Shown here piece after piece: positions 23,249 through 53,870 of a DNA stretch of 64,000 nucleotides. The DNA lies in assembly GCF_000385565.1 (NCBI RefSeq), contig NC_021169.1, positions 124,001-188,000 of the forward strand, in the 5' to 3' direction. Each line of letters starts with the position of its first letter. Positions within the stretch are counted from its first letter, which is position 1. Made by a program: the position numbers and the translations under genes. A model generated the notes under the pieces. That model made no database searches, was not told the DNA's origin, and worked only from the letters and a program-made list of their open reading frames with translations. This DNA comes from Archaeoglobus sulfaticallidus PM70-1. Lineage in GTDB: Archaea > Halobacteriota > Archaeoglobi > Archaeoglobales > Archaeoglobaceae.

Positions 23249-23252
23249 AATA

Positions 23253-24395
23253 TCACACTCCGAAAACTGCTACAGCACCACTTGCGGTTGGGATATACCT
23301 CCAGGCCTGAGCCACACCAACCTCAACATCGCTGAGCTGTCTTTTGCCAGCAAGTCCTCTGAGCTGCAGAACCACCTCAAGAGCTTTTTGCCCACCAGTT
23401 GCCTCAAGCAGGTTGCCAATTCCGAGATTTCCTCCTGAGATATTTACCGGCAGAGCTCCATCCCTTGCAAAGTATCCCTCCTGCATCAGTGTGGCTGTCT
23501 CGTACCTCTTCGATAGCTGCAGGGCTTCGAGGTGCTGCAACTCCTTAAACGCAAATCTGTCATCGACCTCAGCAAAATCGATCTCCTTTGCGGGGTTCGT
23601 TATTCCGGCAAGCTTGTAAGCCATCTTCGCAGATTTGTATGCGTAGTATGCGTTGAAGCTCATCGTGTCGAAGTTGCTTGTCTCACTCCACCAACCAACA
23701 CCTTTAACCCATACTGGATCCTCAGCCTCTTTGGCGATTTTATCACTCGCAAGGACAAAAACTATCGCTCCATCTGCCCTCTGGGCGATCTCGATCTTCC
23801 TCATCGGATCGAACACCATCGGACTGTTCAGAACATCCTCAACCGTTACCTTAGCACCGTAAGGTGCTGAGTCGTTAAGCAGGGCGTTGTTCTTGTTCTT
23901 GACAACAACTTCTGCAATCTGCTCCTCGGTTATGCAGCACTCATTAACATACTGAGCCATTTCAAGTGCTGCGAAGTAGTACGGATGTGCCTTTCCGACA
24001 TTTCTGAGCCATATAGGATCCATTGCAAACTTGATAACATTCCCGAATGTCAGGATGTCACTTGCCTTGCTGTGGGCTTCGACAACAGCCACATCTGCCA
24101 GTCCGCTCTCGATGTGCATGTAGGCTGTTGCGATTCCGTAAAGGAAGTCACCACATATCGTGCATGTTGGTTTCACAACTGCTCCAAGCTGATCTGGAAC
24201 GAACTCGTCAAAGATTGCGAATCCTTCGTAAATGTCCTCAGCACAGGTTATAAAGCTATCGACATCCTTTCTTGGATTTATTCCAGCATCCGCGTAAGCC
24301 CTCGTTGCCGCTTCGTACATAATCTCTTTCCAGCTGAGATCTGGTGTGTTTGCATTAAAGCCATAATAGCCAACACCAATTACTGCTACACCCAT
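23253..24395 (-). CDS. Thiolase-family protein (Cys kept, His replaced)
   Basis: A 380-residue protein of the same thiolase family as its downstream neighbour. The nucleophile position is Cys81 (TICGDF), 17 residues before the Gly of IESGLAD, so acyl transfer is possible. The usual catalytic His of GHP is Asn328 (GIGNLLEATG), and the family EVHD motif reads EVDDRF. It starts the lower part of the operon after a 179-base gap, with ribosome binding site gaggtgat. Acyl-CoA cleavage or condensation is likely, but the altered residues leave the exact reaction open. Confidence 0.85.
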   Translation of the reverse strand: MGVAVIGVGYYGFNANTPDLSWKEIMYEAATRAYADAGINPRKDVDSFITCAEDIYEGFAIFDEFVPDQLGAVVKPTCTICGDFLYGIATAYMHIESGLADVAVVEAHSKASDILTFGNVIKFAMDPIWLRNVGKAHPYYFAALEMAQYVNECCITEEQIAEVVVKNKNNALLNDSAPYGAKVTVEDVLNSPMVFDPMRKIEIAQRADGAIVFVLASDKIAKEAEDPVWVKGVGWWSETSNFDTMSFNAYYAYKSAKMAYKLAGITNPAKEIDFAEVDDRFAFKELQHLEALQLSKRYETATLMQEGYFARDGALPVNISGGNLGIGNLLEATGGQKALEVVLQLRGLAGKRQLSDVEVGVAQAWRYIPTASGAVAVFGV

Positions 24396-24574
24396 TCGAT
24401 CACCTCTTGAACAGGACGAACTTTGAATTGAAACTATTTAAAATTTCCTTTTTTAATCGTTCAAATTAGAAAGGGAAAGGTTAAAGAGAGTTATACTATA
24501 AAAGGTTGGATTTTGTATATTATTTCACCCAAAAAATAATTATAATTTGAAAAATTAGCTAAAGTTGGCCAAGA
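24396..24574 (-). promoter_or_regulatory. AT-rich spacer inside the acyl-CoA operon
   Basis: This 179-base gap separates the CoA-transferase genes from the thiolase genes. It is very AT-rich (for example aaaaaataattataatttg) and has several TATA-like stretches on the minus strand. It probably holds a second promoter for the thiolase/DUF35/dehydrogenase genes. No clear operator or ORF was seen. Confidence 0.35.
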
Positions 24575-25381
24575 TTAGATATCTAGCTTTATCTTTCTAC
24601 CCTTGGAGATAATCAAACCATACGGATCAATGTCTTCTCTGAGAGTCTTGAGTTCAAGCTCGGTCGGTGGCTCAAGCTCGACAACCTTCTCGGCCACCAA
24701 AGGTTCAATGTTCATCTCGTCCAGCACCTCATCTACAGTTAACCCTTTCATAACCCCAATGAGCTTCAGCTCCTTAGTTTTCTCATCAAAGCCGAACATT
24801 CCCATTGAGGTTATGACCCTGTAGGGCCCCGTCTCAGCAGGCAGACCAACCTCATCTCTTGATTTGCCATCGATCATATAGCCTGGGGAGGTTATGAAAT
24901 CACACCTCTCCACAAAACGCCTTTTTTCATGAGCCATGACTATTATCGTCTTCCAGCAATAGCTCGCAACCTCATTTCCGCCACCACTTCCCGGAAATCT
25001 GACCTTTGGTTTTTCATAATCATCTCCGATCATCGTCGAGTTTATGTTACCGTACCTGTCTATCTGAGCCGCTCCAAGCATTCCATAGTCGATGTAGCCA
25101 GCCTGAGCGTAGCTGAAAGCCAGATTCATGCTGCACCACTGCAGGCTGCGATAGGTGTTTGAAGGGCCACCCATTGTTCCCCTCAGGAAAGGTGTTCTGC
25201 TCAACGGCCCTATAGCCCCAAACTCGAAAACCTGAACTATGTTGGGCGTGTAAAGCTTTTCAGCCAGTATCGCAACAACCTGTGGGATTCCCCAGCCGAC
25301 GAATATTGTCTTGTTATCCTCAAGCAGCCTCGCAGCATTACATATCATGAATTCAGTATCCGTAAACTCAATCTCAGCCAT
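24575..25381 (-). CDS. CoA-transferase family I, subunit B (glutaconate CoA-transferase type)
   Basis: This 268-residue protein reads as the beta subunit of a glutaconate-type CoA-transferase. It has GWGIPQVVAILAEKLY, IGGAQ-like MLGAAQIDRYGNINSTMIG, RFPGSGGGNEVAS and MAHEKRRFVERCDFITSPGY. The catalytic Glu that forms the acyl-CoA intermediate aligns to Glu53 (QVFEFGAIG). Its presence argues against the hydrolase-type IpdB, where that residue is reported lost. It follows subunit A by 12 bases. The pair activates or recycles a carboxylate as its CoA ester for the enzymes encoded downstream. Confidence 0.88.
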   Translation of the reverse strand: MAEIEFTDTEFMICNAARLLEDNKTIFVGWGIPQVVAILAEKLYTPNIVQVFEFGAIGPLSRTPFLRGTMGGPSNTYRSLQWCSMNLAFSYAQAGYIDYGMLGAAQIDRYGNINSTMIGDDYEKPKVRFPGSGGGNEVASYCWKTIIVMAHEKRRFVERCDFITSPGYMIDGKSRDEVGLPAETGPYRVITSMGMFGFDEKTKELKLIGVMKGLTVDEVLDEMNIEPLVAEKVVELEPPTELELKTLREDIDPYGLIISKGRKIKLDI

Positions 25382-25393
25382 GATATCACCTAT

Positions 25394-26371
25394 TCACCTA
25401 TAACCCTCAAGAATCTGAGATTTCTGAATCAGCTCTCTGAGCCTCTTCACACCAACCTTCTTTTCCAGAAACTCGTCGTGACTTTCAACGCTGTATATGT
25501 ACTCCTCAAGATACTTCTGCATCTCCTCATCGGTTCTTATGGATGTTAGCTTAAGATAGTGTTCAGAATCCATCTCGTAGTACCCCTGAGTTCCTCCAGG
25601 GTATGCTCCGAACGGGGCATGAACGACGGCATCAACGCAGTAATACGGGATGGTCGTCCAGTTAGGATGCTCCCTGAATTCTATCGTCTCAACTATCCTT
25701 TCTGCAGAGATTATAACCCGCTTGGATGCCATGGCTGTTTCCAGTGTTGCCACAGTTGGCCCATAGACCCTCGCATTCCCGTACACATCCGCCTCCTGAA
25801 CATGAATCACAGACACATCCGGATTCAAGGCTGGCATCAGAGCTACAGGCTTTCCGCTGAATGGGTCCTTAACAACAATGGCTCCAGAGTGCTTCAATGT
25901 ATCTGTTCCCAGCAGATCTCTTGCGGGTATGAAGGGTATTCCCATCGCTCCCGCAACCAGTCTGTAGGTAACACTTCCATTGCTCCAGTCGTAAACTTTC
26001 ACAGCCCCTTCCTGAACCTTTTTGGCTATGTACGGCCCGAATCCGAGAAATCCAACATCTATCTTGTCCACACATCCTGCCCCAGCAAGCAAAACAGATT
26101 CAAGCAGTGTAAATTTGGCAAGAATCCACAAATTTTTCTTTCTCTGACGAATAATCTCCCTTATCAGACTCTGAGGGCCTCTTGTTAATGAGGAAAAATC
26201 GTATGCGAGATAGTCCCCATCCTTCACGAATTTCTTCACCGCCTCTTTTTCATCCATCAGCTTATCCTCAAAAGCCCTATTTTTCTTATCCCTGACAAAT
26301 TTCCTGAACTCATCAGGTGGGATGAAGTGTATGTCTGCTTCACCCATATCCAGAATTTCTATATTTGCCAT
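25394..26371 (-). CDS. CoA-transferase family I, subunit A (glutaconate CoA-transferase type)
   Basis: The 325-residue alpha subunit has the family layout: MDEKEAVKKFVKDGDYLAYDF at the start of the fold, GFGPYIAKKVQEGAVKVYDWSN, GIPFIPARDLLGTD, and ALNPDVSVIHVQEADVYGNARVYG. It is the first gene of the minus-strand acyl-CoA operon. ATG 26371 is chosen; a TTG six bases upstream is also open, and neither has a clear ribosome binding site. Together with subunit B it forms the CoA-transferase; the substrate is probably a dicarboxylic or branched acid but cannot be told. Confidence 0.88.
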   Translation of the reverse strand: MANIEILDMGEADIHFIPPDEFRKFVRDKKNRAFEDKLMDEKEAVKKFVKDGDYLAYDFSSLTRGPQSLIREIIRQRKKNLWILAKFTLLESVLLAGAGCVDKIDVGFLGFGPYIAKKVQEGAVKVYDWSNGSVTYRLVAGAMGIPFIPARDLLGTDTLKHSGAIVVKDPFSGKPVALMPALNPDVSVIHVQEADVYGNARVYGPTVATLETAMASKRVIISAERIVETIEFREHPNWTTIPYYCVDAVVHAPFGAYPGGTQGYYEMDSEHYLKLTSIRTDEEMQKYLEEYIYSVESHDEFLEKKVGVKRLRELIQKSQILEGYR

Positions 26372-26377
26372 GCCCAA

Positions 26378-29945: not shown

Positions 29946-31745
29946 TTAAGGACATCCATTTTTCCAGCCCCGCATACTGTAATAGTCTCCAAGCATTTTC
30001 ATTACATGATCATAATCCACTGTCTCATTTGTTAGGTAATCCCTCCAGACCTTTTTTCCAACCCACGTCTGAAGTGGTGTGAAGAACTTTTTAGGTGGTA
30101 AATCGTCTTTGTAAGTGTATCCTTCACTACAGTTCAGCTTTCTTGCAACACCAAATGCTTCTGCAGATGCTTTGATCATTTCCTCGTTTGAGAGGTTGAA
30201 ACCTGTTGCATAGTTGAACATATCTCTCACAGTGTCTATATTCAGGCTTCTTGCTATGCTCTCTCTCCTGCACAATCCCATTCCATTAAGTAGCCAGAGC
30301 CAGTTTTCAGCAGAGATCGTATAGAGGGCTGAATTGAAACCATTGCGAAATGTTGCTTCAATCAACTCATCACTTGCTCCGATAGACCTCATGTATCTTA
30401 TGATACTCTCCTTCTTCCTTCCGGGAATGACTGTGATCGTTACCGGACCTTCCTGAGCTCCTCTTGGATTTGTCAGCAAGCCAAAAGCTTCGCTTCCAAA
30501 AGATATACGAGGATCAAAAATGGGTTCAATTCCCTTTATGAAATAATCCTCGAATTCACAAAGTCCTTTGAGTCCTTTAATACCCTTTCCAATGTACTCA
30601 CCTATACCTTCTCGATTTGCGACAAGCTTAAGGTACTTCATAACGCATTCAGCACTCCTTTCAATATCGATATCAGTTTTTCCAGATTCTTTAAGTGTTG
30701 CAAGTATATCAAAAAGCTCTGCGAAAGTCATGGCATCGATGCCCATTCTGTTTGCCAAATCATGACATAAAACCGCCTTTTCAGCACTTTCCACACCACA
30801 CTTCACACCAAATTCATATGCAACTCCAAGATACAGAGATGCAAGGCTCTCGACTTTTTTCCCATCAACTTCTACTTCGAGAACAGACTTACATCGTGCT
30901 GGACATCCTACGCACCCTGTACTTCTTTTCTTTATCCGTTCTTTATACTTCTCAACTCCAAATTCCTTTAGAGTGTCTGCATCTACCACTTCACTCTTCA
31001 TTCTCCTTGTGAGATATCCAAGTTTTGCCCATGCATCCCATGCAGACATTATGCCGATATCGGAATAGATTTTTGTAACCTTGTCAGATTTGACCTTATT
31101 CTTGAACTCTCTAACAACTCTACTAAATTCATCTGGTTTTGCAATCTTTGCATCTTTACTTCCTCTAACTCTGATTGCTTTCACATTTTTTGAACCTAGA
31201 ACAGCTCCAAGCCCGCCCTTGCCGATGTGGTGTATGGCATCTATCAGAGCGAGAGCAATTGGCACCCTATTTTCTCCAGCCTTACCGATTGCAAGAACGC
31301 TGTTCGAGTTAAGAAGTTTCGTTGTCTCAACGATATCTTTCCCCCAGAAATTCGCCTTATTTATCTCGATTTTACTGTTTATATCAATCCACACAGGATG
31401 TTTAGCTTTTCCCTTCAAGATAACCATGTCGTAACCAGCCCTTTTCATATTTCTCGCAAATGCACCACCTCCAACTGCTGGGCCGTAGGTGTTGTTCAGC
31501 GGGTTCTTTGTTACAGCTATCGTTTTAGTAGCTCCGGGAATTCCAGTATTGGTTAAAATCCCCGCAGATAAAATTACAAAATTTTCGGGACTTAGCGGAT
31601 CGTATCTTCCAGCAAGTTTTTCAGCAAATTCATAGGCGATGCCAATTATCCCAGCATGCTTCTCGTAAACATGATCATCGATTTCTATTTCTTCATACTT
31701 CATATCACTGAGGTTTATTTCAAGTGCTTTACCAGTAAAGCTCAT
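29946..31745 (-). CDS. aor: Tungsten-containing aldehyde:ferredoxin oxidoreductase
   Basis: AOR enzymes oxidise aldehydes to acids with ferredoxin as acceptor, using a tungsten bis-pyranopterin centre and one [4Fe-4S] cluster. The 599 residues match the family length. Cluster ligands Cys278, 281 and 285 are in TGCVGCPARC, and a fourth lies in the C-terminal third (likely MGLCRRE). The pterin-binding regions TKNPLNNTYGPAVGGGAFARNM and HIGKGGLGAVLGSKNVKAI are clear. It lies 30 bases after a PAS/GAF signalling gene and downstream of permease, aminotransferase and gamma-glutamyl-ligase-like genes, so its aldehyde may come from amine or amino acid breakdown (inference). Confidence 0.92.
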   Translation of the reverse strand: MSFTGKALEINLSDMKYEEIEIDDHVYEKHAGIIGIAYEFAEKLAGRYDPLSPENFVILSAGILTNTGIPGATKTIAVTKNPLNNTYGPAVGGGAFARNMKRAGYDMVILKGKAKHPVWIDINSKIEINKANFWGKDIVETTKLLNSNSVLAIGKAGENRVPIALALIDAIHHIGKGGLGAVLGSKNVKAIRVRGSKDAKIAKPDEFSRVVREFKNKVKSDKVTKIYSDIGIMSAWDAWAKLGYLTRRMKSEVVDADTLKEFGVEKYKERIKKRSTGCVGCPARCKSVLEVEVDGKKVESLASLYLGVAYEFGVKCGVESAEKAVLCHDLANRMGIDAMTFAELFDILATLKESGKTDIDIERSAECVMKYLKLVANREGIGEYIGKGIKGLKGLCEFEDYFIKGIEPIFDPRISFGSEAFGLLTNPRGAQEGPVTITVIPGRKKESIIRYMRSIGASDELIEATFRNGFNSALYTISAENWLWLLNGMGLCRRESIARSLNIDTVRDMFNYATGFNLSNEEMIKASAEAFGVARKLNCSEGYTYKDDLPPKKFFTPLQTWVGKKVWRDYLTNETVDYDHVMKMLGDYYSMRGWKNGCP

Positions 31746-31775
31746 AAAAAATCATTAATTAATAGGAATAAATAA

Positions 31776-34148
31776 TTAACCTTGACTTCCAGACCTTTTC
31801 AGAAAATTTCGTATGAGTTCAGACTCGAGCCACCCCCTGTCGAGTCTTTCAACAGTATCCACAATCCTTTCAACCTGACTGAGTATAAGTTCCCTTGTTT
31901 CCTCATCATCCACTCTTGTTTCTGCAAGTCCGGAGATTGCTGCGAGTGGGTTTCTGATGTGGTCAACGAGAATTGCAAATTTCTCTATGTTGTCTTCTAT
32001 TTGCTTGTATGCAACTTTTCTCTGCTCAAAAAGCACAGCCTCATGAAGCGCGATGGCAAACTGGTTTACGAGGCTCTTTACAAACTCAAAATCATCATCA
32101 GAGATTATTTTCTTCGATGCCAACATGAGCGAACCTATTCTTTCATCTCTCGCAATCAGTGGTAAAACAATGTAGGATTTCATTCCGTTCTTTAAAAGCT
32201 CCACCTCCAGCCTTGACAGAGTCTCAAGCTCCAAAATGCCATCTACCTTCTTCATTTCCACTTCAATATTTCTATCAGCAAAAAGCCGCTGTATGTTTTG
32301 ACTGATTTCCGGTTCCGCTAAGGTCTTCACCTCACTTCCACTGTACACAGCAATGCAGGCAAGATCATAATCTACTATCTCTCTCAAACCTCTCAGAGAT
32401 TCCTTCAATATTTTATCAAATGGTTTTACAGAAAGAATTCCTAAATCGATTGAATATAGGAGGTCCAGCTGTTTTATCATCTTTTCCATCTCTTTCTTAG
32501 TTGCCATATCCTCTGTGATGTCGTGTATCATGCTCAGAAAAGCATAAGGTTTGCCATCCTTCTCAATCAAGACCGATAGAACCTTAATCCACTTCTCTCT
32601 ACCCTCAACCGTTACCTTTAACTTTAACTCAAAAATTTTATCCTGCACACCTCTGTAAAATTCCTCCAAAATACGTGGAAGGTCTTCATGATGGAAAATA
32701 CCGAGATCTGGCCACTTCCTTCCGATAACATCTCTATCCATGCCAAAAATCTTTAATGCGGATTCGTTGCAGTCAAGTACCGTCATGTCAGTTCCAGTCA
32801 GCACAACACCTATGGGTGACTTCTCAAATAGCGTTTTGTATTTGATCTCGCTTTCCACCAATTCTTTCTCAAGCTTTTTCATTTCCGTGATATCAATGAT
32901 GGATAAAATGCACTGCTCTGCAGAAACCATCGAAGCCGTAATGAAAACATTTTTAACATTCCCCTTTACATCAACTATTTTTGTTTCATATCTGGATGGA
33001 GCGAGAGTTGGATCTATCTGTCTTAGCTTGTGATACCTCATCAATCTTTCAATCTCCTCCTCTGGAATAAATTCCATCCAGCTTTTACCAACTAACTCTT
33101 CTTTTGACTGTCCATACAATTTCTCAGCTTCGTGGTTTGCGAATTTTACGGTTGTATCTTCATCTATGATCACCAATGCTGTTCCGGTATTTTCAACAAT
33201 CGTTCCGTATAACACTTCCATTCTCTCTTTCACCTTCTTTTCCCTCAACACCGCAATCGCATAAGACAGGTTCTCTGAAAGTTTTTTCAGCAGTTCAGTT
33301 TCCCCCCCATCAAACGCATCCCTTTCGGAGGAATAGATGTTCAAAGCACCGAAAACAGAGTCCCCATGGATGAGTGGTAAAGCTATTGATGAGGCAAAAC
33401 CTCTTTTCAGTGCGAAATCCCTCCACGGGGTGAAAACTGGATCCGTTTCAATATCTCTAACGATAGCTGGTTTCCCCATCCTTATTGCAGACCCTGTTGG
33501 ACCTTTTCCCGTCTCACTCTCATCCCATGTAACCTTGATCACATCAGCATAACCATCAATTCCTGCCTTTGCAACGGGTCTGACGGTCTTATCGCTTTCC
33601 GCATAACCAATCCATGTGTATGCATAACCACCCTCCTCCACAATCACCTTACAAACTCTCTCCAGCAACTCCTTTTCATCACCAACACGGACTATTTCTT
33701 CATTTACCCTGCTTAAAACCCTCAAAGCTCTTTCAGCTCTTCTCTTCCTTTCCTCAAGCTTTTTAATATCTGTTATATCTCTTATAACGCGAACCGTGTG
33801 AGTTGGTTTTCCATCAGCATCCCTCATTAAAGAAAGGCTTATCAGAACATGAACTTCTGTTCCATCCCTACGCCTCACAAGTCCCTCTACATTCCTGACA
33901 TAGCCTTTCTCCATAAGCTCTGGCATTATTTCTTTAACAACTCTATCCTTCATCTCTTCCGGACGGATTTCAAGTCCTGTAACTGCTTTTCCAACCACTT
34001 CTTCCCTTTTAAATCCAGTAATCCTTTCAAACTCTTTATTAACAAACAGTATTTTTCCAGCTATATTGGTAATTACAACAGCATCATTCATCACTTCAAA
34101 GACATCAGGTATTAGCTCTTTGATTTCTGTATTACACTTACCCTCCAT
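31776..34148 (-). CDS. PAS/GAF multi-sensor protein with H-box but no kinase ATPase domain
   Basis: The 790-residue cytoplasmic protein is built as PAS (about 10-130), GAF (about 145-300), PAS (about 315-425), PAS (about 430-550), GAF (about 560-705), then a short helical end. That end has a histidine-kinase-like H-box, VDHIRNPLAAISG, with His at about 730. Only 60 residues follow, finishing RGWLESELIRNFLKR, so no HATPase domain exists. AOR begins 30 bases downstream, leaving no room for a lost domain. It may be a phosphotransfer or scaffold protein acting with a separate kinase. Its closeness to aor suggests it senses conditions relevant to that enzyme (inference). Confidence 0.85.
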   Translation of the reverse strand: MEGKCNTEIKELIPDVFEVMNDAVVITNIAGKILFVNKEFERITGFKREEVVGKAVTGLEIRPEEMKDRVVKEIMPELMEKGYVRNVEGLVRRRDGTEVHVLISLSLMRDADGKPTHTVRVIRDITDIKKLEERKRRAERALRVLSRVNEEIVRVGDEKELLERVCKVIVEEGGYAYTWIGYAESDKTVRPVAKAGIDGYADVIKVTWDESETGKGPTGSAIRMGKPAIVRDIETDPVFTPWRDFALKRGFASSIALPLIHGDSVFGALNIYSSERDAFDGGETELLKKLSENLSYAIAVLREKKVKERMEVLYGTIVENTGTALVIIDEDTTVKFANHEAEKLYGQSKEELVGKSWMEFIPEEEIERLMRYHKLRQIDPTLAPSRYETKIVDVKGNVKNVFITASMVSAEQCILSIIDITEMKKLEKELVESEIKYKTLFEKSPIGVVLTGTDMTVLDCNESALKIFGMDRDVIGRKWPDLGIFHHEDLPRILEEFYRGVQDKIFELKLKVTVEGREKWIKVLSVLIEKDGKPYAFLSMIHDITEDMATKKEMEKMIKQLDLLYSIDLGILSVKPFDKILKESLRGLREIVDYDLACIAVYSGSEVKTLAEPEISQNIQRLFADRNIEVEMKKVDGILELETLSRLEVELLKNGMKSYIVLPLIARDERIGSLMLASKKIISDDDFEFVKSLVNQFAIALHEAVLFEQRKVAYKQIEDNIEKFAILVDHIRNPLAAISGLAETRVDDEETRELILSQVERIVDTVERLDRGWLESELIRNFLKRSGSQG

Positions 34149-34260
34149 CAGATCACTCCCGTTAGCCCATAAAATTATGCAAATCCAGAATAAACCAGAA
34201 TAAGAACTTTTTCATAAATTCTCATAATAATCATGAGGTGTTTATCTTGATAATACTATC

Positions 34261-35613
34261 TTATACAAATCCCATTTTGTTAAGTAAAGTTGTTGTAACC
34301 TTTACGCCCCTTTTTATCTCATCTATTTCAACATATTCATGTGCGTCGTGGGAGAAAGCTCCAGCCGGTCCAAATTCTACGAGTGTCTTAAAACCAGCTG
34401 AGTGCAAAAAAGCCCCTTCACTCGCACCCGGTGCTATACCAACTTGGTTTATTCCGCTACTTTCCATCACCGCTTTAACAAAATCATCTTCCATTGCATC
34501 ATCAAAAGAGTTACCAATCCCCGCAGAAGGATAAAAAGTCTCTTCCTCTACTGTAAACTCGAAATCCTGCGATACTTTTTTGATTTCTCTCGTAAAGAAA
34601 TCGTGAATGAGTTCAGCTGTTATGCCCCTCCCGTATCTAATATCAACAGAGGATTCGCAAAAATCCGGTATGACATTCAGATCGATTCTATCTATTTTAC
34701 CGCCCACAACCTTTCTTATCCCACCACCCACAATTGAAGTTATGCTGAAGGTCGGTTTTCCAAGCAGTCTGTCTTCTGAATGTTCGTAAAGCTCATCAAT
34801 GATTCTTCTTTTGTTTGCCTCCAAGTAATCTACAATTCTGCACATCTCAACAACAGCATTTCTACCGAGATGAGGTGTTGAGGCGTGGCATCTCTTCCCA
34901 TAGGTCCTGATGTATGCCCAGCAAACACCTCTATGGGCTATGACTGGCATGAAGGAGTAAGACCCTTCCAAGACAACCGCATACCTTTCCCTAAATTTAT
35001 CAAAATCTCGCTTATAGGTTTTAATAAAATGTTTGATTCCTTCAGCATCAACCTCTTCACGCACAGTAAAAACAGCATATATCTTTCCGTCCATTTCTAT
35101 ATCTCCTAAAATATCAAGGAGAAACAGAAGAATTGCTACAGAAGCTTTATTATCGAAGCTCCCTCTCCCGTAAATTATCTTTTTTTCCTTTTCTTTTCGC
35201 ATTTTCCAGATTCTATCCATCTGATCTCTGATTTTCCCTCTCACTCTCTTACCACAAACTTCTACCTCAACAGCAGAATTGCCGAGATACCTAACCACAC
35301 CCTCTTCAGCTCCAAAAGGGTCAGTGAGCCATTTTCCGTAATCTCCAGCAGAGACTGTGTCCATGTGAGCAGAAAAAACGATGCATCTTTCTCCTTCTCC
35401 AACCTCACAGACTATGTTATGTGAATTATCAACCTCGTGGAAGGTTGCACTGACACCAATATCATTCACATATTCCCAAACAAGGTTTGCTATGCTGTCT
35501 TCTCCTATTCTACCCTCCCTGCCGCTAAGACTCTCTTTCTTTACCAGTTCTTTTAAGATGTCGATGTATCTCTTCTCTTTATTTTCTATCTTTAAAGATA
35601 ATTTATTCAACAT
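34261..35613 (-). CDS. M20-family metallopeptidase/deacylase (ArgE/DapE/ACY1-like)
   Basis: The 450-residue protein is an M20 hydrolase. Metal motifs are IVFSAHMDTVSAGDYG (His, Asp), GRGSFDNKASVA (bridging Asp), FTVREEVDAEGIKHF (Glu pair) and late His in GAFSHDAHEYVE. An insertion of about 60 residues lies between the first two motifs. A dimerisation domain (HRGVCWAYIRTYGKRCHASTPHLG) is present. These enzymes cleave N-acyl or gamma-glutamyl amides or short peptides. ATG 35613 is used; ATG 35625 overlaps further into the gene before it. Its place after a ligase-like and a cysteine-hydrolase-like gene suggests amide cleavage in the same pathway. Confidence 0.85.
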   Translation of the reverse strand: MLNKLSLKIENKEKRYIDILKELVKKESLSGREGRIGEDSIANLVWEYVNDIGVSATFHEVDNSHNIVCEVGEGERCIVFSAHMDTVSAGDYGKWLTDPFGAEEGVVRYLGNSAVEVEVCGKRVRGKIRDQMDRIWKMRKEKEKKIIYGRGSFDNKASVAILLFLLDILGDIEMDGKIYAVFTVREEVDAEGIKHFIKTYKRDFDKFRERYAVVLEGSYSFMPVIAHRGVCWAYIRTYGKRCHASTPHLGRNAVVEMCRIVDYLEANKRRIIDELYEHSEDRLLGKPTFSITSIVGGGIRKVVGGKIDRIDLNVIPDFCESSVDIRYGRGITAELIHDFFTREIKKVSQDFEFTVEEETFYPSAGIGNSFDDAMEDDFVKAVMESSGINQVGIAPGASEGAFLHSAGFKTLVEFGPAGAFSHDAHEYVEIDEIKRGVKVTTTLLNKMGFV

Positions 35614-36466
35614 ATGGGCTCCCATTATCCCACAGGCTGATTTTTAGCCCCAATTCTTTCAGACTCTCCTCTATCTCTTCTTTCCTTTCAGATTCAACTA
35701 CGATAAGCATTCCTCCTTCCCTTCCATCATCCCTGAGCAGAGCATTCCTAACACATTCTTCTGGCTGAAGGTGGTAGCCATTGAAACCGTATTTTTTGTA
35801 TGTATCCCTGATTAATATCCATCTGCTATTTTCAAATTCAACAACTCCCGCAAATCCAACAAAATGTCCAACATTCCACTTCCATTTTTCAAAAAATTCT
35901 GGATGTTCGTTGAATTCAATTATCCTCTCCAGAAAGTAGAACTTTCCATTTGGGTCAAGAAGCTTCGATGTATGGTAGTTCAGAACAACCTCCACTTCCT
36001 TTTCTGAGAGTATATAATCTATTAACTGGGAGAATTTTTCTTTCGTGAAGTAGATTTCATTTCCTTTCCGTGACGGAACTGGAATGCATGAAATTCTTCC
36101 ATTCGTTGCTTTCTCACATGCCAGAACAAGTCCTTCTGGACCTATACCACTCTCGCTGTAATCATCTGTAACCCTGTACTCGTACTCGTACCAGAATTCG
36201 TTATACAGCCTTCTGGCGAAGCTTTCTCTCAGTTCACCCCTGCTTACCCCCTCCCTCGCCTCATCGCATTTCCTCTGCTCATTCCTGTGAATATTCATCC
36301 TGGCGAGGTATGCAAGATAATCAATGCTCAAATCCCTAAACCCAATCCCCCTTAGAATACATCCAAGAGAGAAGGCTCCACAAGTATTCTCTTTTTGTGA
36401 TCCAATCTTTACATACTCTTCATGAATATCAAAAAAATTATCAAGGAGCTTTACACTGAATCGCAT
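35603..36466 (-). CDS. Papain/C39-like cysteine hydrolase fold, function unknown
   Basis: I do not recognise the family by name. The 287-residue protein has a papain-like arrangement: Gln24 and Cys29 (SQKENTCGAFSLGCILRG), His201 (NVGHFVGFAGVVEF) and Asp221 (WILIRDTYKKYGFNGYH). This is a possible Cys-His-Asp triad with an oxyanion Gln in C39-like spacing. A charged insert (about residues 60-120) separates the Cys from the core. There is no signal peptide, so it acts inside the cell. It starts 5 bases after the ligase-like gene and overlaps the M20 gene, so it belongs to the amine/amino-acid cluster. A gamma-glutamyl amidase role, replacing PuuD, is a hypothesis. Confidence 0.75.
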   Translation of the reverse strand: MRFSVKLLDNFFDIHEEYVKIGSQKENTCGAFSLGCILRGIGFRDLSIDYLAYLARMNIHRNEQRKCDEAREGVSRGELRESFARRLYNEFWYEYEYRVTDDYSESGIGPEGLVLACEKATNGRISCIPVPSRKGNEIYFTKEKFSQLIDYILSEKEVEVVLNYHTSKLLDPNGKFYFLERIIEFNEHPEFFEKWKWNVGHFVGFAGVVEFENSRWILIRDTYKKYGFNGYHLQPEECVRNALLRDDGREGGMLIVVESERKEEIEESLKELGLKISLWDNGSPYVE

Positions 36467-36471
36467 GCGTC

Positions 36472-37791
36472 TTAGAAGGCTTTCAGATATTTATTAATTT
36501 CCCAATCCGTTACATGCTGGCAAAATGCTTCCCACTCAAACTTTTTGGTTTTGAGATACTCTTCGTAAAGCGTTCTGCCCCAGAATTCTTCAAACATTCT
36601 GTCTTTTTCAAGTTCAGCAATCGCTTCACCGAGATTTTGTGGAAATCTTTCTACACCATACCTATCTCTCTCGGCTTCACTCATATCTGCTGGATCTTTG
36701 TCCACTGGGTCTCCGGGATCGATTTTATTCTTTATCCCATCCACTCCAGCGGCAATTATGCTCCCCAGGACAAGATACGGATTGTTGCAACCATCAACTG
36801 GTTTTATTTCAAGATGGAGTGTTTCTTTTTCCTTTTTGTGAATGGGCAGAGGTATTCTTATCGCAGCTTCCCTATTCTCAAACCCGTAACAGGCATAGGC
36901 TGATGCCCAGTTATGGGGCAGTAGTCTCTTGTAGGAGTTTACTGTTGAGGCTGTGAAGGCAAGCAATGCTTTCATATGCTTTAATATTCCCCCTATGAAG
37001 TGGTAGGCCAAATCGCTCAAATCACTTCCGTCAGCAAACAGGTTCTCACCATCTTTCCAGAGACTTATGTGGATGTGGACACCCGAACCAGGTAGCTCGT
37101 TGGAGGGTTTCGGCATAAAGCTCGCTGTCAGTCCTAAACCCTGCGCAACACCCCTTACAGTCTCTCTGAGTATTATCTGATTGTCAGCAGAGGTTATTCC
37201 ACAAGCTGGTTTTACCGCTATCTCATACTGTCCTGGACCATACTCCGGATAGAAGTGTTCAACAAATACATCCTGCATTTCGAGATATTCTTTTACCCTG
37301 ATTGCAAATTCGTTAGATGCGTTCATGGCTGGAGTGGCAAAGCACAATGCATCATCATATGGTTTTGAGTTGCTGTCGAAAAGATAGAATTCTGTTTCAA
37401 ATGCTGATTTAATTTCAAAATCAAGCTCACTGAGTTTTTGCTTGAGAATTGGTCTCGGATCAGCCTCGAATATTTTCATATCTCTCGTGTAAAAATCTCC
37501 AATAACCATTGCAGTTTTTTCAGCATATGGAACGATTCTGAATGTATTTAAGTCAGGTATGTGCTTGAGTTCACCAACACAGCCATATATCGAGTTTGGT
37601 GTCAGCAGATCAAGTGCACCGAAAGCAGACTGCATGCATGAAACGTATGTCACTCCGCTCACAAGGTCGCTTTTAGCATTTTTTGCATTTCCCATTTTAC
37701 CTCTCACAACACCATCGTTGTCAATGTACAGATATCTGATATATTCTATCCCTTTTTCTTCAATAAGCTTCAGAATTTCATCAAGCTCCAC
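36472..37791 (-). CDS. Glutamine-synthetase-like ligase (gamma-glutamyl-amine ligase type)
   Basis: This is a GS-I fold ATP-dependent ligase of about 440 residues. Glutamate and metal motifs are kept (ETEFYLFD, GPGQYEIAV, GSGVHIHISLW, NSYKRLLP). The ammonia-site motif PGFEAP of the true GS in this window (52376-53824) reads PHNWAS here, so the Glu is Trp. That change is typical of relatives that ligate amines rather than ammonia (PuuA-like). GTG 37791 is chosen: it follows the aminotransferase TAA by one base and has gggtgg upstream; ATG 37830 would overlap that gene. Permease and aminotransferase neighbours support an amine or amino acid substrate. Confidence 0.83.
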   Translation of the reverse strand: MELDEILKLIEEKGIEYIRYLYIDNDGVVRGKMGNAKNAKSDLVSGVTYVSCMQSAFGALDLLTPNSIYGCVGELKHIPDLNTFRIVPYAEKTAMVIGDFYTRDMKIFEADPRPILKQKLSELDFEIKSAFETEFYLFDSNSKPYDDALCFATPAMNASNEFAIRVKEYLEMQDVFVEHFYPEYGPGQYEIAVKPACGITSADNQIILRETVRGVAQGLGLTASFMPKPSNELPGSGVHIHISLWKDGENLFADGSDLSDLAYHFIGGILKHMKALLAFTASTVNSYKRLLPHNWASAYACYGFENREAAIRIPLPIHKKEKETLHLEIKPVDGCNNPYLVLGSIIAAGVDGIKNKIDPGDPVDKDPADMSEAERDRYGVERFPQNLGEAIAELEKDRMFEEFWGRTLYEEYLKTKKFEWEAFCQHVTDWEINKYLKAF

Positions 37792-37792
37792 T

Positions 37793-39115
37793 TTACCACC
37801 CCGCAAACTCCTTAACTTTACTTTCATCAAACCTTCCTTCTACAATGTCTTTAAGAGCCTGATCAAAAATATTCAGACCTTCATCGATTCCCTCTTCATC
37901 GATTACAAGCGGTGGGGTGATCTCCACGACATTGGAATAAAGCCCAACATACGCAAGAACGAGTCCAAGCTCCCAGCAACGATAGGTTAGCATCGCACAT
38001 TCTTTACTTGCAGGTTCTTTACTCTCCCTATCTCTCACCAGCTCAACTCCCACAATAAGCCCTTTTCCCCTGACATCCCCAATAATGTCACGGTTTTCAG
38101 CAATTTCTTTAAGCCCTTTAATCAACCTGTCCCCCATCTTTTCAGCATTTCTATCCAGCTTATTTTCCTTGATGTATTCTATTGTCGCTATACTTGCTGA
38201 ACATCCCGCTGGATGGCCTGCGATGGTTGAAAGATGAAAAGCTCCGGGATAGTCCAAGACCTCCCTGACTCCTATACATGCACTGATAGGGAACCCACCA
38301 CCCATCGGTTTACCAACTGTGATGAAATCTGGTTTTATGCCATAATGTTCAAAACCGAAAAACTTGCCCGTTCTTGCGAAACCGACTTTCACCTCATCAA
38401 CACCATAATATATTCCATTCCTTTTACAGAGCTTATACAATCGATCATGGAACTCCTCTGGCGGGACTATATCTCCCCCATCGCTCTGTATAGGCTCTAG
38501 AAAAACTATCGACACATCCTCTGCTGGTGCAACAGTTTCGAATATATACTCCTCTATGAATCTAACACAGTGAATCTTGCATTCCGGATATTCCAGAGAG
38601 AACGGACAGCGATAGCAGTATGGATATGGAACTTTAACAACACCTCCAGCAGGATTCAACCACCCTTCCGCTTTGTGACCCGACAGGGAAAACGAGCCAT
38701 AGGTTTGCCCATGATATGATCCAAGAAAGGTTATAATCTTGTTCTTTTTGGTTGCATATGGAAGAAGTTTGAAGATGCCATCATTTATATCCGAACCAGA
38801 ATGACCGAAGATAACCTTCTTGTTCTCACTCTCTGGAACCAAAGAGAGTAGGAGTTCAGCAAGTTTTATGGACTTCTCATGATAGTAAGATGTCAAAGAA
38901 AAAGAAGAAGTTTTTGAAAATTGCTCGCACACAGCATCAATGATTTTTTTGTTTCCGTATCCTACATTTGCCACAGCCCAGCTTGCATTGAAGTCTATAT
39001 ACTCCTTCCCGTCAATGTCACGAATCCTGTATCCCTCGCATCTATCCACGATAAGAGGATAAAATTTAATGTCGAAAACACCACCGATTACTTCTGACGA
39101 CCTTCTCCAAGTCAT
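37793..39115 (-). CDS. Class III PLP-dependent aminotransferase (GABA/4-aminobutyrate type)
   Basis: The 440-residue protein is a fold-I omega-aminotransferase. It has GHSGSDINDGIFKLLPYAT and YHGQTYGSFSLSGH, YGVDEVKVGFARTGKFFGFEHYG (cofactor Asp), and the PLP Lys in TVGKPMGGGFPISA. A four-Cys set in PYPYCYRCPFSLEYPECKIHC (about residue 160) is seen in several archaeal relatives and may bind metal. Such enzymes remove terminal amino groups from GABA, ornithine or diamines, giving an aldehyde. It overlaps the permease stop by four bases and is followed at once by the ligase-like gene. Exact substrate unknown. Confidence 0.87.
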   Translation of the reverse strand: MTWRRSSEVIGGVFDIKFYPLIVDRCEGYRIRDIDGKEYIDFNASWAVANVGYGNKKIIDAVCEQFSKTSSFSLTSYYHEKSIKLAELLLSLVPESENKKVIFGHSGSDINDGIFKLLPYATKKNKIITFLGSYHGQTYGSFSLSGHKAEGWLNPAGGVVKVPYPYCYRCPFSLEYPECKIHCVRFIEEYIFETVAPAEDVSIVFLEPIQSDGGDIVPPEEFHDRLYKLCKRNGIYYGVDEVKVGFARTGKFFGFEHYGIKPDFITVGKPMGGGFPISACIGVREVLDYPGAFHLSTIAGHPAGCSASIATIEYIKENKLDRNAEKMGDRLIKGLKEIAENRDIIGDVRGKGLIVGVELVRDRESKEPASKECAMLTYRCWELGLVLAYVGLYSNVVEITPPLVIDEEGIDEGLNIFDQALKDIVEGRFDESKVKEFAGW

Positions 39116-40437
39116 TCCTCCATCACCCTTTTACCGTAAACGAAGTAATATATTGTCAGCAACACCACATAAGCGATTCCGATAATCACCGAGGTCTCTG
39201 CTCCCTGAAAGGTTCCGTAGAATATGATCGCAATTCCTATCAGCCCCAATATCGGGAAAAGTGGGTACAATGGCTGCTTCCAAGGCAGATTTTTGACCTC
39301 TTCAGGGAACTTCCTTCTGTACTGCACCGCACTGATGAGTGAAATTAACCAAGTTACAACCCATGCGAACACAAGAAGGAGCGAAAGGTGTACATAAACG
39401 ATGTCCGGGTTCTGATAACCCAGCAAAACCAGTCCTATACTAGCAATCCATGTGAAGATTATTGCAACATGTGGTGTTTTGTGTTTTTCATGCACTTTTG
39501 AGAAAACACTTGGCAAGATTCTGTCTTCACCCATTGAGTAGAGGAGTCTTGGGGCCGCATAAAGTGTGCCTCCAAGAAGACATGTCGCTGCAGCAAGCCA
39601 AGCAGCAAAGTTAATGATATATGCTGCAGATGTACCAAACGCAACTTCAGCAGCTTTGGTAAACGGAGATTCTGAGACGCTGAGTTCTGAATATGGGACA
39701 AGTCCAAGCATTGCCGCCATTGCAATTGTATATATGATCAGAAATGTTATAGATGATGCCCACAACGCTCTTGGCAGGTCCCTTGGGTCTCTAACTTCAC
39801 TTCCAGAAGTTGCAAGAGTTAAAGCGCCCATGTATGCATAGGTTCCAAAGGCAATCGCCGGAAAGAGGCTTGAAAAACCATTGGGCATAAAGGGTGTATA
39901 ATTGCTCGGGTCTATTTTACCACTTGCAAACCCGAAGATGCCAAAGAGTAGCATAAGTCCAACCAATCCAAGGACCAGTACTAACTGAGTGTTCGCTGCA
40001 GGAATGACACCGACCAAGTTCAGTAGCATGAAAACTGTTAACCAGATTATCGCCCATATAACTACTGAGATCTCTGGGCTTCCAATCTGGAAAAACCAGG
40101 AAGTAATTGTTCCTATGGCTAAACCCACTGATCCTCCTGCGATTATCCACCCGATTGCATAAGAAGTGCCCGTAAGAAATCCTGCCAGTCCACCAAGCGT
40201 TCTTTTGTTCCATACCCACATTGCACCAGCATCAGGCATGCCTACAGCCATCTCACCCATGCTAATCATTATAAAAAGCAAGAACAACCCCGCAATCGTA
40301 TAAGCTACCAAAGCTGCTGGGCCGGCGATTTTTGCACCCTCTCCAATAAGGAGAAAAATACCATCACCGACGACAGCACCCACTCCGATAGCCCACACAT
40401 GTTTAAAAGAAAGTCCCTTTACCAATTCTCTATCCAT
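39112..40437 (-). CDS. APC-superfamily amino acid/amine permease
   Basis: The 441-residue protein has about 12 membrane helices and the APC signature in helix 1 (VGAVVGDGIFLLIGEGAKIAGPAALVAY) and helix 6-7 (FGTYAYMGALTLATSGSEVRDPRDLPRAL). The latter is the EVxxPxRxxPRA motif of the family. It is the first gene of the minus-strand cluster running to the M20 hydrolase, with ribosome binding site ggggtgat. The imported substrate is probably an amino acid or polyamine that feeds the aminotransferase and ligase encoded next. Confidence 0.88.
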   Translation of the reverse strand: MDRELVKGLSFKHVWAIGVGAVVGDGIFLLIGEGAKIAGPAALVAYTIAGLFLLFIMISMGEMAVGMPDAGAMWVWNKRTLGGLAGFLTGTSYAIGWIIAGGSVGLAIGTITSWFFQIGSPEISVVIWAIIWLTVFMLLNLVGVIPAANTQLVLVLGLVGLMLLFGIFGFASGKIDPSNYTPFMPNGFSSLFPAIAFGTYAYMGALTLATSGSEVRDPRDLPRALWASSITFLIIYTIAMAAMLGLVPYSELSVSESPFTKAAEVAFGTSAAYIINFAAWLAAATCLLGGTLYAAPRLLYSMGEDRILPSVFSKVHEKHKTPHVAIIFTWIASIGLVLLGYQNPDIVYVHLSLLLVFAWVVTWLISLISAVQYRRKFPEEVKNLPWKQPLYPLFPILGLIGIAIIFYGTFQGAETSVIIGIAYVVLLTIYYFVYGKRVMEE

Positions 40438-40899: not shown

Positions 40900-40970
40900 T
40901 GCGCGAGCCGGGATTCGAACCCGGGCTAACGGCTCGGAAAGCCGTTGTCCTACCACTAGACTACTCGCGC
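40900..40970 (-). tRNA. tRNA-Gly (anticodon TCC)
   Basis: Read on the minus strand the gene folds as a full cloverleaf. The acceptor stem is gcgcgag/ctcgcgc, the D arm gtc...gac with aGTGGTAg loop, the anticodon stem acggc/gccgt with loop tttccga, and the T arm ccggg-ttcgaat-cccgg. Loop positions 34-36 are tcc, which reads glycine codon GGA. The discriminator base is A. There is no intron and the 3' CCA is not encoded. Confidence 0.95.
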
Positions 40971-43248: not shown

Positions 43249-43380
43249 ATGAAGAAGCTAAGATGCCATCACTGTGGGCACGAGTGGAACTACAAGGGTA
43301 AGTCAAAATACTATGCTACCTGTCCTGTGTGTCATTACAAGGTGAGGATTCGTGAAAGCTCGGAAAGTGATTTCAGTTAA
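43249..43380 (+). CDS. Small zinc-ribbon protein coupled to tnpB
   Basis: A 43-residue protein starting MKKLRCHHCGHEWNYKG with a complete CxxC...CxxC ribbon (RCHHCG, TCPVCHYK) and a basic, Ser-rich end. The longer frame from 43159 reads through the structured region and is unlikely. Its last 29 bases overlap the start of tnpB in another frame; the ggtgag ribosome binding site of tnpB is inside this gene, so the two are translationally coupled. It may help TnpB bind DNA or RNA. Zinc binding is inferred from the four Cys; the function is unknown. Confidence 0.72.
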   Translation: MKKLRCHHCGHEWNYKGKSKYYATCPVCHYKVRIRESSESDFS

Positions 43381-44455
43381 GCTGAAACCTGTTGGAGAGC
43401 AAGCGGAGAAAATAGACGGGCTGTTTAGTGAGTACAGGCGATTAGCCATGTTCCTCATTGAGTGTTGTAAAAAGACTGGAATCAGAGATTACTACCGACT
43501 GCACAATTTTGCGTACAACTTTTGTAAGGAAAACTATCGATTACCATCAGAAGTAATACAGCAAGGGATGAAACTCGTTACAAATACTTTTAAGGGAAGT
43601 TATAAAGCAAGACATATTCCTAAAATTGATGTTAATGATTTTCCGATAAGGCTTACTTACGGAGAGAAGCACCTATTCTACTTTGTGTTTGATGGTGGTC
43701 TTAAAGCAAGAATAAGCTTGCCTAACGGTAGAAGCTTCAAAAAAGAAGAAATCCTGATTCACAACGGTGAACTGAACGACAAGCTCTCAGAACTGACCAA
43801 ACACAAAATCTCCGATTCCTTGCTCTTTCCAGATTACAGACTGCTAATCACACTAACGAAAGAGGTTGAAATAGACTACGTGCCTGAGAACGCTATTGGC
43901 GTTGATATAGGAATAATCAACCTAATAACGGCATACTGCAATGGCAAAGTTCTGCAAATCTCAGGAGAACAAATTCTTGAGGCTCACAAGAAAGGTGTTG
44001 AACATCGAAGGCTGAAGCAAAAGCTTGGTTCGAGAAAGTTCACATACAACGAATCCAAGTTCGTTAGGGATTACGTGTACCATGCTGCCAATCAAGTAAT
44101 CGAGTTTGCCAAGCAGTTTGAAAAGCCCGTAATCGTACTGGAAGATTTAAAGTGGCTGAAGAGAAAACTAAAGAGGCTACCACACATCTATACAATAGCT
44201 CCTTACGAGTTAATTCACTCAGCAATTGTTGAGAAGGCTTTGTGGGAAGAGATTGCAGTTCAAACAAGGAAGGCCTATTACTCATCACAGAAGTGTCCTG
44301 TGTGTAAATATGTCAGTTCAAAGAACAGAAAAGGAAGAAGATTCAAGTGTCTTAAGTGTGGGTTCGAAGAAGATGTTGATGTTGTTGCGGGAATGAATTT
44401 ATCGTTTTTCGCAATTCCCCCACCCATTAAAATGGGTGGTACCCTTGCGAGGTGA
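43352..44455 (+). CDS. tnpB: TnpB RNA-guided nuclease homologue (canonical RuvC site)
   Basis: This 367-residue TnpB has all three RuvC acids: Asp185 (IGVDIGIINLITAY), Glu264 (VIVLEDLKWLKRKL) and Asp343 (EEDVDVVAGMNLSFF). It also has the zinc ribbon Cys315, 318, 333 and 336. Its sequence is very different from the other TnpB in the window. The start is GTG inside the zinc-ribbon gene, with ggtgag six bases upstream. The last residues (PPPIKMGGTLAR) are read from the terminal hairpin and then from flanking host DNA; the TGA stop lies within the ribosome binding site gaggtga of the next gene. No tnpA accompanies it. Confidence 0.87.
   Translation: MKARKVISVKLKPVGEQAEKIDGLFSEYRRLAMFLIECCKKTGIRDYYRLHNFAYNFCKENYRLPSEVIQQGMKLVTNTFKGSYKARHIPKIDVNDFPIRLTYGEKHLFYFVFDGGLKARISLPNGRSFKKEEILIHNGELNDKLSELTKHKISDSLLFPDYRLLITLTKEVEIDYVPENAIGVDIGIINLITAYCNGKVLQISGEQILEAHKKGVEHRRLKQKLGSRKFTYNESKFVRDYVYHAANQVIEFAKQFEKPVIVLEDLKWLKRKLKRLPHIYTIAPYELIHSAIVEKALWEEIAVQTRKAYYSSQKCPVCKYVSSKNRKGRRFKCLKCGFEEDVDVVAGMNLSFFAIPPPIKMGGTLAR
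44420..44439 (+). repeat. Right-end hairpin of tnpB element 2
   Basis: A perfect 9-bp stem (ccacccatt/aatgggtgg) with a 2-base loop, matching the form of the hairpin at 7339-7358. In tnpB elements the guide RNA scaffold normally ends at this structure. Confidence 0.7.
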
Positions 44456-53824: not shown

Positions 53825-53870
53825 TTTCATTCCTCCAGATTTAAATATATTTAGAGCAGATTGTAATTGG

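What the first reader, a model, noticed from the sequence alone, without database searches (positions are those of the whole stretch)
29946..40437. Possible anaerobic, ferredoxin-linked gamma-glutamylation pathway for amines
One strand carries, in order, an APC permease, a class III aminotransferase, a GS-like ligase whose ammonia-site Glu is Trp, a papain/C39-like hydrolase, an M20 hydrolase, a PAS/GAF sensor and a tungsten AOR. The first five genes overlap or nearly touch. The known bacterial Puu route uses permease PuuP, ligase PuuA, oxidase PuuB, aldehyde dehydrogenase PuuC, Cys hydrolase PuuD and aminotransferase PuuE. Here AOR could replace the oxygen/NAD-dependent oxidation steps, and the C39-like or M20 protein could replace PuuD. 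No such archaeal arrangement is known to me.
Basis: partly seen in the sequence, partly recalled or inferred. Interest (0 to 1): 0.75.

Follow-up and report, generated by a model that had tools for sequence, protein, structure and literature searches.

The report
Archaeal gamma-glutamyl amine-processing gene module
A block of five overlapping genes in the sulfate-reducing archaeon Archaeoglobus sulfaticallidus probably tags an imported amine or amino-acid compound with glutamate and then cuts the tagged product; the same block recurs in salt-loving archaea and in a second archaeal group, but the tungsten enzyme next door is not part of it.

Summary
The genes are as described, on the minus strand of Archaeoglobus sulfaticallidus PM70-1. 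Only the first five (34261-40437: APC permease, class-III PLP enzyme, GS-like ligase, DUF6885, M20 hydrolase) form a unit. That unit recurs in another Archaeoglobaceae genus and in haloarchaea. Its core, GS-like plus DUF6885, is together in all 20 DUF6885 loci examined. The AOR accompanies it in one of the 20, and AOR orthologs in ten related genomes examined sit beside unrelated genes. AOR and the PAS protein are therefore neighbours, not members.

Gamma-glutamyl chemistry gains support. The ligase has Trp at the ammonia-site Glu position and Cys at Tyr179. DUF6885 is predicted to have a papain fold whose best solved match is phytochelatin synthase Alr0975, caught as an acyl-enzyme with glutathione. 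Eight sister clusters carry a gamma-glutamyltransferase. The PLP enzyme is not PuuE-like: it has the signature of aminocaprolactam/amino-acid-amide racemases.

Best reading: an archaeal module that imports an amino compound, gamma-glutamylates it and processes the conjugate with a phytochelatin-synthase-like Cys enzyme. Substrate and direction are unknown. An archaeal glutamate-putrescine ligase is already known (Haloferax mediterranei GlnA-2). The ferredoxin/AOR part is not supported.

The parts
39112..40437 (-). APC-family amino-acid/amine permease, first gene of the unit
   Evidence: Pfam AA_permease 1e-53; 85% identical to the copy in sister genome G021, about 50% to haloarchaeal module permeases, 46-47% to permeases of cluster type b
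37793..39115 (-). Class-III-fold PLP enzyme, aminocaprolactam/amino-acid-amide-racemase-like
   Evidence: Aminotran_3 6e-91; best PDB matches include alpha-amino-epsilon-caprolactam racemase, amino acid amide racemase and broad-specificity amino-acid racemase; EPIQSDGG, DEVKVG and C-terminal FAGW shared with ACLR 5m49 and with all 13 module enzymes checked
36472..37827 (-). GS-like ligase, predicted to be a gamma-glutamyl-amine/amide ligase (TTG at 37830 is an alternative start)
   Evidence: Gln-synt_C 8e-100; metal-site Glu residues, R321, R339 and R344 kept; E327 to Trp, Y179 to Cys, D50 lost, R359 to Lys; best NCBIfam is gamma-glutamylputrescine synthetase NF045547 at 459 bits, below its 650 cut-off
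35603..36466 (-). DUF6885 (PF21819): papain-fold, phytochelatin-synthase-like cysteine enzyme
   Evidence: PF21819 2e-84; invariant Q24, C29, H201 and D/E221 in 17 sequences; AlphaFold model of the haloarchaeal homolog (pLDDT 83, pTM 0.86) has best PDB matches to phytochelatin synthase Alr0975, E 3.8e-5
34261..35625 (-). M20-family metallohydrolase, last gene of the unit
   Evidence: Peptidase_M20 2e-21 and M20_dimer 6e-17; orthologs with a shared insertion in G021 and haloarchaeal modules

Best explanation
The five genes at 34261-40437 form one archaeal gamma-glutamyl-conjugate module, gained or lost as a block. Proposed working: (1) the APC permease imports an amino compound (in two haloarchaeal versions a PotABCD-type ABC importer is in the cluster instead); (2) the racemase-like PLP enzyme adjusts the stereochemistry of its alpha-amino carbon; (3) the GS-like ligase spends ATP to make gamma-glutamyl phosphate and passes the glutamyl group to the compound's amine; (4) DUF6885, a phytochelatin-synthase-like papain-fold enzyme, forms an acyl-enzyme with the gamma-glutamyl-tagged compound and hydrolyses or transfers it; (5) the M20 hydrolase (a gamma-glutamyltransferase in second-phylum clusters) releases the parts. 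Shown by computation: gene set, conservation, predicted fold, active-site residues, absence of AOR from the unit. Inferred: each reaction, their order, catabolic direction, substrate.
For: Conservation: GS-like and DUF6885 are in the same cluster at 20 of 20 DUF6885 loci, directly adjacent in 18. ACLR-like PLP enzymes accompany them in 14, M20 in 8, gamma-glutamyltransferase in 8 others (PF01019 2.4e-98 in the one tested). Sister genome G021 has APC-PLP-GS, a contig break, then M20, flanked by unrelated genes. Patchiness: DUF6885 in 1 of 59 Archaeoglobi genomes (G021's copy would fall in its contig gap), 4 of 392 of the haloarchaeal class above cut-off, 11 of 398 of a second phylum. Ligase: ammonia-site residues replaced, catalytic Glu residues kept; Trp is also at this position in glutamate-methylamine ligase 9qur (alignment); a haloarchaeal module ligase passes the gamma-glutamylputrescine-synthetase cut-off, 702 against 650. 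DUF6885: fold match to Alr0975/glutathione acyl-enzyme, with Cys at a helix start, His at a strand start and Asp after a strand. PLP enzyme: racemase signature in 13 of 13; a catalytic Asp is essential in Ile 2-epimerase and in P. horikoshii Ala/Ser racemase (PMC6047364; the position match is my inference). AOR independence.
Against: No substrate, product or expression is known. Ligase and hydrolase acting on the same unmodified amine would be a futile ATP cycle, so a step in between is missing or DUF6885 cuts another bond, as Alr0975 does with the Cys-Gly bond of glutathione. Three clusters (type b) have only permease, ligase and DUF6885, so PLP, M20 and GGT are not essential. The window ligase is well below the NF045547 cut-off. 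The model of the window's own DUF6885 was poor (pLDDT 64) with no structural match; the good model is of a 35%-identical homolog, and its TM-scores to Alr0975 are moderate (0.43 by query, 0.59 by target).
Confidence: 0.6

Rival explanations
1. Puu-like polyamine catabolism: the ligase gamma-glutamylates putrescine or a longer polyamine, the PLP enzyme acts as a transaminase, an aldehyde is oxidised elsewhere, and DUF6885 or M20 does PuuD's job.
For: NF045547 is the best NCBIfam for the ligase; Haloferax mediterranei GlnA-2 is a proven glutamate-putrescine ligase (PMC8394153); PotABCD-type importer genes stand in two haloarchaeal modules.
Against: No PuuB or PuuC homolog seen in any module and no PF00171 in the genome; the PLP enzyme has racemase-type, not GABA-aminotransferase-type, motifs; most versions use an amino-acid-type APC permease; PotA/PotD-type components also serve other substrates.
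Confidence: 0.25
2. One reading: an anaerobic gamma-glutamylation route in which the neighbouring tungsten AOR oxidises the gamma-glutamyl aldehyde with ferredoxin.
For: AOR lies downstream on the same strand; the genome lacks PF00171 aldehyde dehydrogenases, so an AOR-type enzyme would be needed for any aldehyde.
Against: AOR absent from 19 of 20 DUF6885 loci and from sister genome G021; its orthologs in ten other contexts have unrelated neighbours; a 112-bp gap and a PAS gene separate it from the unit; no aldehyde-forming step is evident; the genome has seven AOR candidates to choose from.
Confidence: 0.07
3. Biosynthetic module: the ligase and the phytochelatin-synthase-like enzyme build a gamma-glutamyl peptide or solute (metal-binding, redox or osmotic) rather than degrade an imported compound.
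For: Best fold match of DUF6885 is a phytochelatin synthase, a family whose members build (gamma-Glu-Cys)n by transpeptidation (knowledge); the racemase could supply a D-residue.
Against: A permease is the usual partner, and M20 or GGT hydrolases accompany many copies; Alr0975 itself is mainly a glutathione hydrolase (knowledge); no peptide exporter or thiol genes seen.
Confidence: 0.15

Closest known systems
Bacterial Puu pathway (PuuP-PuuA-PuuB-PuuC-PuuD-PuuE)
   Same: Importer, GS-like gamma-glutamyl ligase, a cysteine enzyme and a class-III PLP enzyme in one cluster
   Different: No PuuB oxidase or PuuC dehydrogenase; the Cys enzyme is papain-fold, not a class I glutamine-amidotransferase-like PuuD (knowledge); PLP enzyme is racemase-like; M20 or GGT added
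Haloferax mediterranei GlnA-2 glutamate-putrescine ligase (PMC8394153)
   Same: Archaeal GS-like ligase lacking the ammonia-site residues; glnA-2 stands between transporter genes
   Different: Different residue at Y179 (Ala in GlnA-2, Cys here); no DUF6885, PLP or M20 partner described there
Phytochelatin synthase family, Nostoc Alr0975 (PDB 6tho, 2bu3, 6th5)
   Same: Best fold match of DUF6885; papain-type Gln/Cys/His/Asp set; acts on a gamma-glutamyl peptide through an acyl-enzyme
   Different: No sequence-level match to a phytochelatin synthase profile in Pfam at E 10; 10-12% identity; no cysteine-peptide or metal context
Alpha-amino-epsilon-caprolactam / amino acid amide / broad-specificity amino-acid racemases (5m49, 6gio, 9wrf)
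   Same: 41% identity to 5m49; shared EPIQSDGG, DEVK and C-terminal FAGW
   Different: Substrate unknown; found beside a gamma-glutamyl ligase here
Glutamate-methylamine ligase (PDB 9qur)
   Same: GS-like, about 219 bits by phmmer, Trp at the same position
   Different: Arg at position 359 in 9qur, Lys here; other genomic setting

Membership tests
Puu putrescine pathway | GS-like ligase specific for an amine | tested here: inconclusive
   Ammonia-site residues replaced, but window ligase scores 459 against the 650 cut-off of NF045547
Puu putrescine pathway | Gamma-glutamylputrescine oxidase PuuB and aldehyde dehydrogenase PuuC in the cluster | tested here: not met
   No such genes in the window cluster; none recognised at the other loci; PF00171 absent from the whole genome
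Puu putrescine pathway | PuuE-type GABA aminotransferase | tested here: not met
   Racemase-type EPxQSDGG/DEVK motifs, best PDB hits racemases; GABA-aminotransferase models score far below cut-off
Tungsten AOR as pathway member | Conserved linkage with the ligase unit | tested here: not met
   1 of 20 loci; orthologs elsewhere are unlinked
Glutamine synthetase (ammonia) | D50, Y179, E327 ammonia-site residues | tested here: not met
   D50 lost, Cys and Trp at the other two positions; a canonical GlnA lies at 52376-53830
Phytochelatin synthase | Papain fold with Gln-Cys-His-Asp catalytic set | tested here: met
   Fold match E 3.8e-5 and conserved residues, on a predicted model of a homolog; Glu replaces Asp in the second-phylum sequences
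Phytochelatin synthase | Sequence membership in the Pfam phytochelatin synthase family | tested here: not met
   17 members scanned at E up to 10; only DUF6885 significant
Phytochelatin synthase | Dipeptidyl transferase activity on gamma-Glu-Cys | not testable with these tools
   Needs enzyme assay
ACLR-type PLP racemases | Catalytic Asp in EPxQxD in place of the aminotransferase Glu, plus DEVK Lys | tested here: met
   13 of 13 module enzymes; importance of the Asp in related racemases from PMC6047364; role of the Lys from memory
ACLR-type PLP racemases | Racemase activity | not testable with these tools
   One member of the wider group showed no racemase activity (PH1423 in PMC6047364)

The most novel reading that the evidence does not exclude
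DUF6885 defines a new, archaeal gamma-glutamyl tag-and-cut pathway for amino compounds or short peptides, perhaps containing D-residues: the substrate is capped with glutamate to give a glutathione-like gamma-Glu-X(-Y), and a phytochelatin-synthase-like enzyme cuts or transfers the capped unit, with M20 or GGT finishing the release.
Probability: 0.3. Interest if true: 0.72.

Novelty: new variant of a known kind. Interest (0 to 1): 0.55.

Why it matters
It gives a family of unknown function (DUF6885) a predicted fold, a likely active site and a fixed partner, and turns a loose neighbourhood guess into a testable archaeal module present in at least three archaeal groups. If confirmed, it would add a non-Puu gamma-glutamylation route that works without oxidase or aldehyde dehydrogenase, and show a phytochelatin-synthase-like enzyme outside metal detoxification. 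It also removes AOR from the proposal, so assays need not chase a ferredoxin step.

Tried and rejected
AOR membership (rejected by context of orthologs). PuuE identity of the PLP enzyme (rejected by motifs). tRNA-Gly at 40900-40970 as an integration site: its 3' end has no second copy in the window. Viral contigs for DUF6885: none. First AlphaFold model with the window sequence as query: too poor, Foldseek gave nothing. Profile of 17 DUF6885 sequences against PDB sequences: nothing significant. Literature for DUF6885: no paper. GGT in the own genome: none.

Full report
What is there. The genome is Archaeoglobus sulfaticallidus PM70-1: the held genome is 2,076,931 bases, the size reported for CP005290 (PMC3703591). 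The first five genes, read from 40437 down to 34261, overlap or nearly touch; M20 is followed by a 112-bp gap, the PAS/GAF gene, a 30-bp gap and AOR.

Who belongs to the unit. DUF6885 (PF21819) was found in only one of 59 Archaeoglobi genomes and one of 393 genomes drawn from the phylum. A second Archaeoglobaceae genome, G021 of another genus, has APC, PLP enzyme and the first half of the GS-like gene at 85-86% identity at a contig end, and M20 (67%) at the start of another contig. The missing stretch would hold the rest of the GS-like gene and DUF6885; this is inference from a contig break. There the unit is flanked by unrelated genes, with no PAS gene, and no close AOR exists in that genome. 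Haladaptatus caseinilyticus and H. halobius plasmids, Saliphagus and Halorussus, and three further genomes of the haloarchaeal class carry GS-like, DUF6885 and M20; most also carry the PLP enzyme and a permease. In Halorussus and one other, a PotABCD-type ABC importer is in the cluster and no APC permease was seen there.

A second phylum. In the phylum of 'archaeon isolate B6' (L013), 11 of 398 genomes have DUF6885 above the cut-off. Their clusters, apart from L013 itself, are of two types. Type a (L082-L089): an APC-like transporter, a metallophosphoesterase, a gamma-glutamyltransferase (PF01019 2.4e-98 in L083; the same ORF is recognisable by its N-terminal sequence in the other seven), the GS-like gene, DUF6885 and a PLP enzyme about 50% identical to the window's. 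Type b (L090-L092): APC permease, GS-like and DUF6885, with an ornithine-cyclodeaminase/mu-crystallin family gene nearby in two. Over the 20 DUF6885 loci examined, the GS-like gene is in the cluster in all and directly adjacent in 18. AOR is present in one, the window.

AOR. Orthologs at 47-66% identity exist in 13 other Archaeoglobi genomes. In ten contexts none has a module gene beside it. The genome has no PF00171 aldehyde dehydrogenase and seven AOR candidates, so AOR enzymes probably do the cell's aldehyde oxidation in general. Nothing ties this AOR to the unit beyond adjacency in one genome.

GS-like ligase. Aligned to the genome's own GlnA, it keeps the metal-binding glutamates and R321, R339 and R344, but has Trp for E327, Cys for Y179, no D50, and Lys for R359. 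Trp and Cys hold in every DUF6885-linked ligase aligned; Lys at 359 holds in the Archaeoglobus, haloarchaeal-module and Deinococcus relatives only. Trp is also at that place in glutamate-methylamine ligase 9qur. Haloferax mediterranei GlnA-2 lacks the ammonia-site residues too and is an experimentally shown glutamate-putrescine ligase (PMC8394153). The H. halobius module ligase passes the NF045547 cut-off (702 against 650); the window's does not (459), so the amine should not be assumed to be putrescine.

DUF6885. Seventeen sequences share invariant Q24, C29 and H201, with D or E at 221. The first AlphaFold run (window sequence as query) was poor. A second, with the H. halobius sequence as query and the same five sequences, gave pLDDT 83 and pTM 0.86: Cys at the start of a helix, His at the start of a strand, Asp just after the next strand, as in papain-like enzymes. 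Foldseek against the PDB ranks phytochelatin synthase Alr0975 first to fourth (E 3.8e-5 to 1.5e-4, probability 1.00), including glutathione acyl-enzymes, then other papain-like proteases. No Pfam phytochelatin-synthase match is seen at sequence level. So it looks like, but is not a sequence member of, that family.

PLP enzyme. Closest solved proteins include aminocaprolactam racemase, amino acid amide racemase and broad-specificity amino-acid racemase. All 13 module enzymes checked have EPxQSDGG, DEVK(V/A)G and a C-terminus of the type (F/Y)xGW, as in ACLR 5m49. An Asp close to the substrate carbon is essential in Ile 2-epimerase and in the P. horikoshii Ala/Ser racemase, whose relatives were annotated as GABA aminotransferases (PMC6047364); that it corresponds to the Asp of EPxQSD is my inference. 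A racemase or epimerase is more likely than PuuE, but a homolog in that group had no detected racemase activity, so this stays an inference.

M20. The window and haloarchaeal M20 proteins align over their length with a shared insertion and conserved metal-site motifs. M20 occurs in the Archaeoglobus and haloarchaeal versions, gamma-glutamyltransferase in type a; the window genome has no gamma-glutamyltransferase. That the two play equivalent roles is a hypothesis.

Mechanism and limits. Import, stereochemical adjustment, gamma-glutamylation, cysteine-enzyme processing and final hydrolysis is the reading that uses all five genes. Ligase and hydrolase on the same unchanged amine would waste ATP, so either a modification step lies between or DUF6885 cuts a different bond, as Alr0975 cuts Cys-Gly in glutathione (established knowledge). 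Substrate candidates: an amino acid or D-amino acid, an amino-acid amide or small peptide, or a polyamine. None is shown.

Evolution. Patchy distribution, different flanks in two Archaeoglobaceae genera, plasmid location in Haladaptatus and mixed affinities (PLP enzyme closest to type a; APC and M20 to haloarchaea) suggest transfer between lineages; direction is not resolved. In the GS tree the module ligases lie apart from GlnA, with the window ligase on a long branch near the haloarchaeal and Deinococcus ones.

Noticed in passing
window 31776-34148: PAS/GAF sensor protein (790 aa) ends in a HisKA match with no ATPase domain match; possibly a truncated or split histidine kinase.
   Followed up: no
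window 29946-31745: AOR belongs to an Archaeoglobi subfamily (47-66% identity) present in 13 other sampled genomes with varied neighbours.
   Followed up: partly
whole genome G000: No PF00171 aldehyde dehydrogenase in Archaeoglobus sulfaticallidus, although all 14 control genomes have one.
   Followed up: no
window 43352-44455: TnpB-like protein (Cas12f1-like TNB domain 4e-13), about 3 kb from the module.
   Followed up: no
window 22046-26377: Two thiolase-like proteins and two CoA-transferase subunits in a row on the minus strand, an apparent acyl-CoA degradation cluster.
   Followed up: no
L010 12600-13721, L005 18714-19814, L012 6546-7646: Haloarchaeal modules also carry an Amidohydro_2 protein; in Deinococcus plasmids a GS-like gene is followed by an annotated amidohydrolase, recalling fungal FluG fusions (from memory).
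   Followed up: partly
L090 6934-8022, L092 9610-10593: Ornithine-cyclodeaminase/mu-crystallin family gene next to the minimal APC-GS-DUF6885 cluster; could hint at the substrate.
   Followed up: no
L082-L089: A conserved gene of about 269 aa without Pfam match lies near the PLP gene in second-phylum clusters (L083: 10426-11235).
   Followed up: no
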